63,006 bases of DNA, taken from contig NZ_AUMJ01000037.1 of NCBI RefSeq assembly GCF_000430625.1, forward strand, positions 1 to 63,006. Reading direction: 5' to 3'. The stretch comes from Aneurinibacillus terranovensis DSM 18919. Lineage in GTDB: Bacteria > Bacillota > Bacilli > Aneurinibacillales > Aneurinibacillaceae. Numbering within the stretch: the stretch's first letter is position 1; every line of letters starts with the position of its first letter. The notes below the pieces were generated by a model. The model was given only the letters and a program-made list of their open reading frames with translations, searched no databases and was not told the DNA's origin. The position numbers were made by a program, and so were the translations under genes. This document shows, in pieces, positions 40,492-45,263 of this stretch.

Positions 40492-40577
40492 GCTCTTTTA
40501 AATCGTTATTCTCTGCGACAGATTTGTAAAGCCGTTTAAATATTTGTCGGAAACTTTTTTTGTGCCCTCCCGTTGTT

Positions 40578-40610
40578 TTGACAAATTTTCGAATCCACCT
40601 GTGTTTAAAT
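40578..40610 (+). promoter_or_regulatory. Spo0A-type sigma-A promoter of spoIIE
   Basis: TTGACA (40578-40583), 21 bases, TTAAAT (40605-40610). The 21-base spacing is the known unusual spacing of B. subtilis spoIIE, a Spo0A-activated promoter. One-mismatch 0A boxes TGACAAA (40579-40585) and TGTCGGA (40545-40551) lie at the -35 and upstream. Confidence 0.7.
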
Positions 40611-40646
40611 GGGAATCACAAAAAATGTGAGAGGCGGTGCGGCAAT

Positions 40647-43106
40647 ATGATTCGCGGTGAATCTTTTTCAGTGTCTAAACCAGTTCATACTATTCAACAG
40701 GTGGGTGCCAGGGGCAGGAACTGGCTTTGGGTCGTATCCCATCAGTGGAGCCTTTTCCACCTGTTCATGGGATTCTTATTGGGACGGGCTCTAATCTTAC
40801 AGGAACTTTCGCCTTTTGCCGTTCCATTCTTTGCGGTAATGTACTTCTTAAAGAAAAATCGGTTACTACTGATGACAGCAGCTTTACTGGCGGGGAGTGC
40901 TACACGATCAATCGGCATTGCGTCCGCAAATTTTTTCGGTATGGCTCTGGCGCTGCTCATGCTAACGTTTATGGACCGCAGAAGAAAGGGCGAGATGAAT
41001 TATGCTCCGTTTATTTCATTTCTCGCGGTCCTCCTCAGCCATACTGGCCTTGATTATGTTATGCACCGCATGACATGGTACGGTATGTTTATGAATGGCG
41101 TTGAAGCGCTTCTGGGCATGATTCTTACCCTCATATTTGTGCAGTCCATCCCGATTGTTTCATTGCGGCGCAGTCACCATCAGCTAAAGAGTGAAGAAAT
41201 CATTTGTTTAATTATACTTCTGGCTTCTGTCATGACAGGTACGGTTGGATGGAAAATTGAGGATGTGGACGTAGATAATATCCTTTCGCGCTACATTGTC
41301 TTATTATTTGCAGCGGTAGGGGGGGGCACCGTCGGAGCCGCGGTGGGGGTGGTAACCGGACTGGTTCTTAGTCTGGCAAACATTGACGCGGTATATCAGA
41401 TAAGCCTGCTCGCTTTCTCGGGCCTGCTCGCGGGTTTGCTGCGGGAAGGCAACAAGCTGACGGTGGCGTTTGGACTTTTAATCGGTTCCTCCATTTTAAC
41501 AGTCTACGTGGGGGAACAGCGGGAAATTATGCAATCAACGATTGAAACAGTAACAGCTATTCTCGTTTTTTTAATAACACCTCGCGGAGTTCTTGCTGAA
41601 ATTGCAAAGTTCATCCCCGGCACCCAGGAGAATGCCGCTTCCCAGCACCAGTACTTACGCAGGGTGCGTGATGTGACGGTCCATAAAATGGATAAGTTTG
41701 CCGGATTGTTTTCGCAGCTTTCCCAAACATTTATTCTGCCGAATACGGAGGTGGTGGATGAAGAAGGGCAGCACGACGTTTTCTTAAGCGAGGTCACCAA
41801 AAGCACCTGTCAGCGCTGCTGGAAAAAGGATATGTGTTGGGTTCGGAATTTTCAGGAAACATACAGTGAAATGACCGGTATGATTCAGAAACTAAAAGAG
41901 GAAGGGGAAATAACAGTCTACGATGCACCCAAGAACTGGATTAAAAAGTGTATCAAGCAGGAACTCGTTCTCCAGAACATGGAACAGGAGTATGCCCGCC
42001 TGCGGAATCAGGATCACATTAAAACGCAGATAGCGAGCAGCAGGCGCCTGGTTGCCGAACAGTTGGCGGGTGTAGCACGGGTGATGCAAAATTTTGCGAA
42101 GGAGATTCAGAAAGAAGGCATACATCTTCATATTCAGGAAGAACAGATTATGAAGGCGCTGGAAGGGATGGGATTGTCCATCAGAAATGTAGATATTCTC
42201 AGCCTTGATGAAGGGAAGGTGGATATAGAGATAAGCCAGCCATCGTGCAGCGGCCGGGATGAATGCTCCAAAATCATAGCCCCGTTATTGTCCGATGTTC
42301 TCGGCGAGAAAATTACAGTAAAAGGAAGGGATTGTGAAGCCATGGCGGATGGCTACTGTACGATGTGTTTGGGTTCCGCGCAGGAGTTTGAAATTGAAAC
42401 AGGCGTAGCCGGGGCTGCTAAAGGAGGACAGTTATTATCGGGTGATTGCTTTAAAATTATGGAGTTTGGATCGGGTAAGGTGGCCCTGGCTATGAGCGAT
42501 GGAATGGGAAACGGGGAACGGGCCTATATGGAAAGTTCATCCACACTGGATTTGCTTGGCCAGCTCCTTGAATCGGGCATGGAAGAAACGCTGAGTATTA
42601 AATCGGTGAATACGGTGCTGTCCCTTCGTTCACCGGATGAGGTATATGCTACGGTTGATCTGGCTCTGATTGATCTGCATACAGCCCAAACTAAATTTAT
42701 TAAAACAGGTTCAACGCCCAGTTTTATTAAGCGAGGCAATGAGGTCATTCCGATTTCAGCTAATAATTTGCCCATCGGTATTATTGACGATATCGAAGTC
42801 GATGTAGTGAGCTGCGGGCTTAAACCGGGCGATTTATTAATCATGATGACAGACGGAATTTATGAAGCGGCACGCGATGTAGAGAATAAGGATTTATGGA
42901 TGAAGCGAAAAATTGCGGAATTACAAACGAATGACCCGCAGGAGGTAGCTGACCTGCTGCTTGAACTGGTCATCCGTCACCACTACGGAGATATTGTGGA
43001 TGACATGACGGTCATGGTCTCTCGAATCGACCGGTACGTCCCGGCATGGGCCGCCATTTCTCTCCCCAATGCGCCCAAAATCGATAGGCCCCGTTATGTG
43101 AGTTAG
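40647..43106 (+). CDS. spoIIE: Stage II sporulation protein E (PP2C phosphatase)
   Basis: Dephosphorylates SpoIIAA to free sigma-F and acts at the polar septum. The 819-residue protein has about 10 N-terminal membrane segments (to about 330), a central cysteine-containing oligomerisation region, and a C-terminal PP2C domain (about 590-819) with AMSDGMGNGERA, LLIMMTDGIYEA and DDMTVMV for metal binding. ATG at 40647 follows GAGAGGCGG; longer frames to the left run through the promoter. Confidence 0.96.
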   Translation: MIRGESFSVSKPVHTIQQVGARGRNWLWVVSHQWSLFHLFMGFLLGRALILQELSPFAVPFFAVMYFLKKNRLLLMTAALLAGSATRSIGIASANFFGMALALLMLTFMDRRRKGEMNYAPFISFLAVLLSHTGLDYVMHRMTWYGMFMNGVEALLGMILTLIFVQSIPIVSLRRSHHQLKSEEIICLIILLASVMTGTVGWKIEDVDVDNILSRYIVLLFAAVGGGTVGAAVGVVTGLVLSLANIDAVYQISLLAFSGLLAGLLREGNKLTVAFGLLIGSSILTVYVGEQREIMQSTIETVTAILVFLITPRGVLAEIAKFIPGTQENAASQHQYLRRVRDVTVHKMDKFAGLFSQLSQTFILPNTEVVDEEGQHDVFLSEVTKSTCQRCWKKDMCWVRNFQETYSEMTGMIQKLKEEGEITVYDAPKNWIKKCIKQELVLQNMEQEYARLRNQDHIKTQIASSRRLVAEQLAGVARVMQNFAKEIQKEGIHLHIQEEQIMKALEGMGLSIRNVDILSLDEGKVDIEISQPSCSGRDECSKIIAPLLSDVLGEKITVKGRDCEAMADGYCTMCLGSAQEFEIETGVAGAAKGGQLLSGDCFKIMEFGSGKVALAMSDGMGNGERAYMESSSTLDLLGQLLESGMEETLSIKSVNTVLSLRSPDEVYATVDLALIDLHTAQTKFIKTGSTPSFIKRGNEVIPISANNLPIGIIDDIEVDVVSCGLKPGDLLIMMTDGIYEAARDVENKDLWMKRKIAELQTNDPQEVADLLLELVIRHHYGDIVDDMTVMVSRIDRYVPAWAAISLPNAPKIDRPRYVS

Positions 43107-43190
43107 GGCACGGGAGCAGTGACTGTCCGCGATTCTCCTCCATTTGGGGACCGGCCCGAAACATCTTTTTTGTACCGTCTTAATACACCT

Positions 43191-43315
43191 CTAGTAGTCT
43201 GTCCGACGAAGCATTTTTAGCGAATATTTATTCATGTATACCTTATAATCAATGCATAAAGCACTGTTGTTTGGATAAATATATAAAATTTTCATTCTGT
43301 TGGACAGACTCTTAG
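43191..43315. mobile_element. MITE-like segment bounded by 17-base inverted repeats
   Basis: CTAGTAGTCTGTCCGAC (43191-43207) and GTTGGACAGACTCTTAG (43299-43315) are inverted copies matching at 14 of 17 positions. The 91 bases between them are AT-rich and hold no frame. A possible TTAAT duplication lies at 43180-43184 and 43317-43321, but not flush with the repeats. 43107-43190 shows nothing else. Confidence 0.45.
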
Positions 43316-43350
43316 GTTAATTTTACCACAACCAGGCGGCTGCTTTTTGA

Positions 43351-43785
43351 TTAATCAGCTAAAACTCTACCGTCACTATCAAGAGAAGCAACCCTATTGC
43401 CTTTCTATTCCTTAAGTTTCTAAGCTCGTCCACCATGTCCAGCGGTATCTTTGTCAATAACCCACCCTGTTTTAGGGTTTTTGTACGATACACTTCTCCT
43501 GACTTTATCGGTGAATTTACCAAGAACCACAGTAGTTTTATCTTTTTTAAGTGAACTTTGTATTTTAGCAGCTGTTGACTCGATATATGCGTTATAAACT
43601 GTTATCAACAGTGCTGAAGCTTTAGGTACGTAAATTTGGGATGAAAAGTAAATACGCAAGTTAAAATCAGTCAGCACGGACGGTCTGTGCTTCCCCGCAA
43701 GGAAAAACCCTGCAAAAAATAAAATGGTCCATTCCATTGCCCACCAACCTACGTTTACTGTCAAACGGTTACGAATGAATATCAT
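43351..43785 (-). pseudogene. Decayed polymorphic-toxin-like C-terminal domain
   Basis: The frame gives SVSYKNPKTGWVIDKDTAGHGG, then a TAG (43422-43420), KLKE, another TAG (43407-43405), and KGNRVASLDSDGRVLAD before the true stop. HGG followed by KGNRVASLD is a pattern I associate with C-terminal nuclease-type toxin tips of secreted polymorphic toxins. Both stops could come from TGG (Trp) by one base change. The N-terminal part (to 43785) is hydrophobic, matches no delivery domain that I recognise, and may be unrelated or frameshifted. No immunity gene is seen next to it. Confidence 0.6.
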
Positions 43786-43868
43786 GCCTGAAGAAAGCCG
43801 ATAATAATGCGAAAAAAATTTTGTAACTTCTATGTTGATTAATCGTATACAATAGTACGGTAAGGAAA

Positions 43869-45263
43869 ATGAAGGTGAAAAAGTTGCTGCAGGTTTTAGA
43901 AAAGACCATTTTGGATTACGAACTGCTTGGCCGTGGCGATAAGATACTGGTTGCTGTGTCAGGTGGCCCGGATTCTATCGCTCTTTTGCATGCATTTGTG
44001 TCTTTGCGTGATAAATATGGCTGGCAGCTTGCCGCCGCACATGTAAACCATGAGTTTCGCGGGAAAAGCGCAGTCGAAGACAGCATGTATGTGGAGGAAA
44101 TGTGCCGGAAGTTTAAAGTTCCGTGTTATGTGACCTCAATTAATGTTCCTTGGGTGATTGAAGAGACGGGATTGAACCCTCAGGAGGCGGCACGCGAAGT
44201 CCGCTACAACTATTTAAAAAAGATTGCCGCTGATATCGGGGGAGCTACCATTGCAACGGCCCACCATGCCGATGACCAGGTGGAAACAGTTTTGATGCGC
44301 CTTGTGCGTGGTACAGGAATTGAAGGATTGGCTGGAATTCCTATTTGGCGGAAGGAAGGGGATATCAAAATCATCCGCCCGCTGCTTGAGGTGACACGCA
44401 GACAGATCGAAGCGTATTGCGAAGAAAATAACCTCAATCCCAGACACGATCCGAGTAATTTTAAAGGAAAGTATTTAAGAAACAGGATTCGTCTCCAGTT
44501 GGTTCCGCTTCTTAAAGAAGAAAATCCTGCTTTAACCGACGCGATCACACATTTAACAGCGGTTGCTAGTGCCGAAAATACATACATGGAACAAGAGAGC
44601 ATAGCGGCGGCTAAAGCAATCATAGAAGAAGAAAACCAGAATAAAATGGTTATAAACCAAAATGGGTTTTTAGCCTATCACGTTGCTTTACAAAGGAGGA
44701 TGATTAAACTAATATTAAGTTATCTATCGGGACAACTAGGTGAAATCGGTTTTGCCCATATAGAAAAAATCAGGGAACTAATCAAAGGTGATCATCCTTC
44801 GGCTCGTCTCATCTTACCCCACGGCCTGCAAGTTCAGCGGGAATATCACCGGATCATTTTTTCATCTATAACTGAATCCGTACTGACGTCCTCTTTTTGT
44901 TACCCTCTAAACATTCCGGGCCGAACGTATATACCGGAAATTAATCGGACATTTAACTGTTTTTATGGTGATGCAAAGGGAAATACAGGGAGCTCTGTCG
45001 CTGTGTTTGATCCGTCCGGCATTAAGGGTAAGCTATATGTAAGACCCAGACGAGCTGGCGACCGCATGACGATTCAAGGCATGAACGGAAGCAAAAAAGT
45101 AAAAGATATTTTTATTGATGAAAAAATTCCACGCACGATGCGAGACATACTTCCCATTGTAACGGATGAACAGAATATATTATGGATTCCCGGGGTGAAA
45201 CGTTCAAACGAGTGTTTATATACAGCAGGAACAGGACCTTTATTATATGTTGAAGTAGAATAG
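43869..45263 (+). CDS. tilS: tRNA(Ile)-lysidine synthase
   Basis: Converts C34 of tRNA-Ile(CAU) to lysidine so that it reads AUA. The 464-residue protein has the PP-loop [15 protein letters not shown], the [14 protein letters not shown] and [15 protein letters not shown] motifs, and the C-terminal domain [22 protein letters not shown]. The ATG at 43869 has its purine site only 2 bases away; TTG at 43884 with AAGGTG (43872-43877) is an alternative start. It precedes hpt and ftsH as in B. subtilis. Confidence 0.94.

What the first reader, a model, noticed from the sequence alone, without database searches (positions are those of the whole stretch)
43351..43785. Toxin-domain relic broken by two amber codons
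Seen: the minus-strand frame continues through two TAG codons into KGNRVASLDSDGRVLAD and then stops. Both TAG could be former TGG. The pattern resembles C-terminal tips of polymorphic toxins. A recent inactivation is suggested because the frame is otherwise intact. No partner immunity gene or delivery domain is visible, so it may be an orphan tip that was left behind.
Basis: partly seen in the sequence, partly recalled or inferred. Interest (0 to 1): 0.5.

Follow-up and report, generated by a model that had tools for sequence, protein, structure and literature searches.

The report
Dead orphan tip of interbacterial toxin
Between two housekeeping genes lies the broken leftover of a toxin tip of the kind bacteria use against each other; it can hardly work any more, but its intact relatives look like a little-described branch of a known family of RNA-cutting toxins.

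Summary
In detail: on the minus strand the frame from 43785 runs through two in-frame TAG codons (43420-43422, 43405-43407) and ends at 43351. The toxin reading holds, although the relic itself hits no toxin model. Its last ~72 codons (profile match 43357-43572, E 2.6e-31) are homologous to C-terminal tips of intact Rhs and small, mostly secreted proteins; in 12 of 13 intact loci a gene in immunity position follows. One intact tip (AlphaFold2, pLDDT 88) has CdiA-CT of Enterobacter cloacae (4NTQ, Ntox21, an RNase) as best PDB match, with moderate scores. Three of four active-site residues are shared, but none of 12 relatives tested reaches the Ntox21 Pfam cut-off: a divergent Ntox21-like branch.

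The relic is a pseudogene. Besides the stops it lacks a delivery region and an immunity gene; the genome shows no second copy and no Rhs core. The spoIIE-tilS spacer is 762 bp here, 98-380 bp in 13 relatives; a MITE-like element and repeat pieces flank the tip. Codon-position differences resemble those between intact genes, so it was lost late. The first half of the reported ORF is repeat and unrelated DNA. Ordinary as an object; the unmodelled branch is the interesting part.

The parts
43351..43572 (-). Relic of an Ntox21-like toxin tip (homologous stretch of about 72 codons), including the final stop
   Evidence: profile match 43357-43572, E 2.6e-31; tblastn to L012-L017; alignment A1
43420..43422 (-). 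first in-frame TAG, on an alignment column invariant in 8 intact rows; lies after the conserved D and H and before the conserved K
43405..43407 (-). second in-frame TAG, on a variable alignment column
43573..43785 (-). 5' part of the mechanical ORF; no toxin or delivery homology found, partly repeat DNA; not the original N-terminus
   Evidence: shuffle test against 12 relatives; repeat hits
43673..43765 (+). piece of a dispersed repeat with a CTTCCC-GGGAAG palindrome, 42 further matches in the genome
43108..43165 (-). second piece of the same repeat system, opposite orientation, directly after spoIIE
   Evidence: blastn to L056, L057, L071 beside their repeat copies; orientation read from those rows
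43191..43317 (.). MITE-like element with imperfect terminal inverted repeats, 33 bp beyond the end of the relic, where an immunity gene would be expected
   Evidence: inverted arms 43191-43207 and 43299-43315, 82% complementary; 97.6% identical copy at C15:76952-77077
40560..43106 (+). spoIIE, left flank
   Evidence: ORF; found before tilS in 13 of 15 relatives' stretches; gene name recalled from the sequence
43869..45263 (+). tilS, right flank
   Evidence: ORF, found in 17 of 17 genomes; gene name recalled from the sequence

Best explanation
The feature is a pseudogene: the detached C-terminal tip of a polymorphic interbacterial toxin, of a branch related to Ntox21 / CdiA-CT of E. cloacae. 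Shown: homology of the last ~72 codons to tips of intact proteins; two stops inside the tip; no delivery part and no immunity gene beside it; an enlarged spoIIE-tilS spacer with a MITE-like element and repeat pieces. Inferred: a tip cassette arrived horizontally in the spacer, lost or never had its partner parts, and decayed. An intact member would be exported by its own signal peptide or displayed on an Rhs protein, enter a rival cell and cut RNA, most likely 16S rRNA as CdiA-CT(ECL) is reported to do, while the neighbouring gene protects the producer. Here any product would stop before the conserved K and the C-terminal strands, so it should be inert.
For: Homology. Context of relatives: Rhs proteins ending in the tip (L013 with Rhs core by NCBIfam; L022, near-identical by eye), small 191-247 aa proteins with a shared hydrophobic stretch. 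A gene follows directly in 12 of 13 intact loci read (not L029), DUF3885 in two, as also behind a close Ntox21 homologue in Priestia. Fold: model of the L014 tip, pLDDT 88; 4ntq_A ranks first by VIA (Z 5.5, next 2.8) and by Foldseek (prob 0.82, E 0.2). Profile-profile against five Ntox21 rows: E 4.3e-5, probability 69%, 35 columns, aligning D203, H207 and K214 of ECL (residues from PMC9086364, passages; numbering) with columns invariant in A1. L010 gives a sub-threshold Ntox21 hit on that motif (15.3 bits, cut-off 25). Insertion: gap 762 bp versus 98-380 in 13 relatives. GC3 0.26 in the tip, 0.51 in spoIIE. Late decay: differences to L012 at codon positions 1/2/3 are 12/9/34 over 55 codons, as among intact pairs. 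Orphan tips lacking start signals are known (PMC3150448, passages).
Against: The relic has no hit above cut-off in Pfam or NCBIfam, and none of 12 relatives tested has a Pfam hit above cut-off in the tip. The fold match is moderate (Z under 8, which the tool warns may mean only a common arrangement; TM 0.47). ECL's D205 aligns with A, S or D in the branch, so one catalytic residue is not kept. The literature on Ntox21 differs: the table of PMC3482391 calls it a tRNase, PMC9086364 gives 16S rRNA. The nuclease step is therefore inferred. I cannot tell whether the stops are fixed or assembly errors; the missing parts do not depend on them. The open frame of 148 codons upstream is unexplained.
Confidence: 0.85

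Rival explanations
1. The 121-aa ORF up to the first TAG is a real small gene (for instance a domesticated, harmless tip used as decoy or antitoxin).
For: The frame is open for 148 codons, rare in simulation (8 of 2000).
Against: Half of it is dispersed repeat and unrelated DNA; no family hit above cut-off; no other copy in the genome; matches in 2 of 60 relatives, one of them weak (E 0.07), none in the 1 genome of the same genus and the 9 of the same family searched; no clear ribosome-binding site before ATG 43785 by eye.
Confidence: 0.07
2. TAG is read as an amino acid (pyrrolysine) and the tip is functional.
For: Both interruptions are TAG, and the frame downstream stays homologous.
Against: No PylS above cut-off in the genome; the best match is 30.8 bits where 178 are needed, and 13 of 14 control genomes ring in the same search, only one of them above the cut-off. 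One TAG is at a column otherwise invariant in A1. Delivery and immunity parts are still missing.
Confidence: 0.02
3. The stops are sequencing or assembly errors in an otherwise intact orphan tip cassette.
For: The rest of the tip is intact and the codon pattern is that of a selected gene.
Against: Two separate errors 15 bases apart in an assembly rated 100% complete seem unlikely (no reads were seen); even then start, delivery part and immunity gene would be missing.
Confidence: 0.06

Closest known systems
Ntox21 (PF15526) / CdiA-CT of Enterobacter cloacae ATCC 13047 (PDB 4NTQ)
   Same: best fold match; similar motif order K, [DS]xDxxxH, K, R (PMC3482391 table); D203, H207, K214 kept; DUF3885 neighbour in some members of both
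   Different: below the Pfam cut-off; D205 mostly replaced; the listed end motif RxxD not seen by eye; carriers in the loci read are Rhs and small, mostly secreted proteins
orphan cdiA-CT / rhs-CT tip modules (PMC3150448, passages read)
   Same: detached toxin tip without start signal; some known ones lack an immunity gene or are disrupted by IS elements
   Different: those described lie in cdi or rhs loci; here no Rhs core was found in the genome (CDI not searched) and the tip itself is broken by stops
Colicin E3 cytotoxic domain
   Same: the 4NTQ fold is reported close to ColE3 (2.5 A rmsd; PMC9086364 passage)
   Different: not compared directly here; not in the rows shown, which excludes nothing

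Membership tests
Ntox21 (PF15526) | scores above the Pfam gathering cut-off | tested here: not met
   no hit for the relic; 12 relatives scanned, best is L010 with 15.3 bits against a cut-off of 25; own genome 0 matches, 2 of 398 genomes of the phylum match (0 of 14 controls)
Ntox21 (PF15526) | fold of CdiA-CT(ECL) | tested here: inconclusive
   4ntq_A is the top match with a clear gap to the next, but Z 5.5 and TM 0.47 are moderate
Ntox21 (PF15526) | four active-site residues D203, D205, H207, K214 | tested here: not met
   three of four conserved by profile alignment; D205 replaced by A or S in most rows, D in L010
Ntox21 (PF15526) | RNase activity (16S rRNA in PMC9086364, tRNA in PMC3482391) | not testable with these tools
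   needs an assay
polymorphic toxin tip | same tip on several unrelated N-terminal carriers | tested here: met
   Rhs proteins (L013 by NCBIfam; L022; L028 Rhs-like by eye only, Pfam shows no RHS hit) and proteins with a signal peptide by eye (L015, L017, L024-L026, L029)
polymorphic toxin tip | gene in immunity position directly downstream of intact members | tested here: met
   12 of 13 intact loci read; protective function not tested
functional orphan toxin/immunity module | intact tip frame and adjacent immunity gene in the window | tested here: not met
   two stops; only 244 bp to the spoIIE stop, 126 of them MITE-like; no DUF3885 and no match to profile A3 in the genome

The most novel reading that the evidence does not exclude
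The relic points to an undescribed branch of Ntox21-like RNase toxins, mostly in Gram-positive bacteria, whose main carriers are miniature self-contained polymorphic toxins: about 190-250 residues with their own signal peptide, one conserved hydrophobic segment (YFIPGIGxVAIAATGAIVV) that may carry the tip across the target membrane, and the tip, with a modified active site and an own immunity family, found on chromosomes and prophages.
Probability: 0.4. Interest if true: 0.5.

Novelty: new variant of a known kind. Interest (0 to 1): 0.32.

Why it matters
As a single object it is one more decayed toxin tip. It matters as a pointer: none of 12 relatives has a Pfam label above cut-off in the tip, nor any of 6 in NCBIfam, and 4 scanned in PHROGs and 3 in PADLOC gave nothing convincing there, so annotation calls such proteins hypothetical. 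A nine-row profile found 3 further genomes besides the window's own in a sample of 398 of the phylum. If the branch were given a tested activity and an immunity family, many orphan genes could be annotated at once.

Tried and rejected
Direct family searches of the relic: only chance-level hits (DUF4380, MvaT, DUF973, HU). Phage records: no match for the relic or for an Ntox21 piece. PDB by sequence with the branch profile: chance hits only. Rfam (43000-44000) and tRNAs (window): nothing. PylS and TAG recoding: rejected. Upstream part as a remnant of the delivery region: no score above shuffles against 12 relatives; the best, L024, was reached by 38 of 300 shuffles. Colicin E3 did not appear in the rows shown, which excludes nothing. 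A denser sample of one class (82 genomes) gave no new member. CDI or other delivery systems besides Rhs were not searched in the genome. The repeat's stem shows no compensatory changes.

Rows dropped: L011 (E 0.07) was not used; L016, L018 and L021 were left out of A1 because they are tip-only or frame-broken. Of plasmid hits H1-H7, H3, H5 (Rhizobium, E 6e-3) and H7 were not fetched; L023 was not read. L013 and L022 are near-identical proteins and count as two of the 13. A4 uses 4 of 12 plasmid records (H8, H9, H12, H16) plus L072; H15 was fetched but not used; L073 was left out. In one search, 16 loci were given (the window's own and 15 relatives); 2 relatives had no spoIIE match and 13 were measured; L048 was not given to the call.

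Full report
What is in the sequence. It lies between spoIIE (40560-43106) and tilS (43869-45263), both on the plus strand (gene names recalled from the sequences). A stop-free run of 148 codons within the spacer precedes the first TAG; 8 of 2000 simulated spacers reach that.

What the frame encodes. The frame itself has no toxin hit in Pfam or NCBIfam. With X at the stops, the last 67 residues find six loci in named genomes: Ureibacillus thermosphaericus (71% over 55 residues), Bacillus sp. ISL-51, [Clostridium] symbiosum, Bifidobacterium callitrichos, Brachybacterium massiliense and Acidipropionibacterium timonense. Seven plasmid records match at E up to 0.1, six of Bacillota and one weak match in Rhizobium, and no phage record. 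A nine-row profile (A1, relic included) finds 4 of 398 genomes of the phylum, the window's own among them, and four viral contigs.

Relatives. I read 17 loci. In 13 the tip ends an intact longer ORF: Rhs proteins in L013 (Rhs core by NCBIfam) and the near-identical L022, a fragment that looks Rhs-like by eye in L028 (no RHS hit in Pfam), and smaller proteins otherwise. A signal peptide is visible by eye in L015, L017, L024-L026 and L029; the listed ORFs of L012 and L014 show none clearly. Six short carriers share a segment around YFIPGIGxVAIAATGAIVV, and L012 faintly. In 12 of the 13 a gene follows directly; in L029 no ORF of 80 aa or more does. Two of the followers are DUF3885 proteins. Seven downstream genes, L010's included, share a GL[YF]L end (A3; low identity, 15-28% to the first row). 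In the other 4 loci (L010, L016, L018, L021) the tip is detached or frame-broken: L010 looks like a broken version of the gene intact in L026, and L016 lies behind a transposase-like ORF (by eye). So the window's relic is one of several detached tips of this branch.

Activity. AlphaFold2 on the L014 tip with seven relatives gave pLDDT 88. The best PDB match is CdiA-CT of Enterobacter cloacae (4ntq_A): Z 5.5, rmsd 2.4 over 56 residues, next row Z 2.8; Foldseek also ranks it first, with a weak E of 0.2 and probability 0.82. A Z under 8 alone would not settle the fold. That toxin is an Ntox21 domain: an Ntox21 piece from L072 finds 4ntq at 8e-7, and PMC3482391 (passages) equates the two and lists the motif K, [DS]xDxxxH, K, RxG[ST], RxxD. 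PMC9086364 (passages) gives 16S rRNA as its target and D203, D205, H207, K214 as its active site, whereas the 2012 table calls it a tRNase. Profile-profile alignment (E 4.3e-5, probability 69%, 35 columns) puts D203, H207 and K214 on columns invariant in A1 and D205 on an A/S/D column. L010, which has D there, gives a sub-threshold Ntox21 hit. I conclude a divergent Ntox21-like branch, probably RNases, not formal members.

State of the relic. It keeps the conserved D and H before the first stop; the conserved K and the final strands lie behind it. Upstream no delivery region was recognised; downstream there are 244 bp to the spoIIE stop, 126 of them MITE-like. The genome has no second tip, no Rhs core (2 of 14 controls ring), no DUF3885 (1 of 14 controls rings) and no match to the A3 profile (without positive control). 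PylS is absent by cut-off. The product should not be a working toxin.

How it got there. In 13 relatives the spoIIE-tilS gap is 98-380 bp, 204 in the one other genome of the genus; here it is 762. The extra DNA includes the tip, a MITE-like element and pieces of a dispersed repeat in both orientations. Low GC3 (0.26 against 0.51) fits a foreign origin. Codon-position differences to L012 (12/9/34) resemble those among intact pairs, so most of the divergence arose under selection and the decay is late. The order of events is inference.

Novelty. Orphan and disrupted tips are known (PMC3150448, passages). For the branch itself, text searches for Ntox21, DUF3885, polymorphic toxins and orphan tips listed nothing that I recognised as describing it; for all but three of those papers only listings were seen, so absence from print is not shown.

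Noticed in passing
window 43673-43765 and 43108-43165: Dispersed repeat with a CTTCCC-GGGAAG palindrome; 43 places in this genome, none in the 12 relatives searched, one of them of the same genus; no Rfam match. In 19 aligned copies stem changes are one-sided (C-G to U-G, or to unpaired C-A in 8 of 19 at two pairs), so no compensatory changes were seen.
   Followed up: partly
window 43191-43317; L052; L053:149-288: MITE-like family with ends around GAGTCTGTCCGACG, TA beside the ends by eye; L053 has 23-nt inverted ends, 96% complementary. The autonomous element was not sought.
   Followed up: partly
   Followed up: no
L022, L024, L025: Tips of this branch lie on viral contigs (IMG/VR); by eye L024 is beside a tape-measure-like ORF and L025 beside a DNA-methylase-like ORF, which suggests spread by prophages.
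   Followed up: no
L075:500-750: A close Ntox21 homologue in Priestia megaterium is followed by a DUF3885 gene, the same neighbour family as two members of the new branch: DUF3885 may be an immunity family for both.
   Followed up: no
L072 (around 1504-1656): The Ntox21 match in G040 is itself interrupted by a stop or frameshift, another decayed tip.
   Followed up: no
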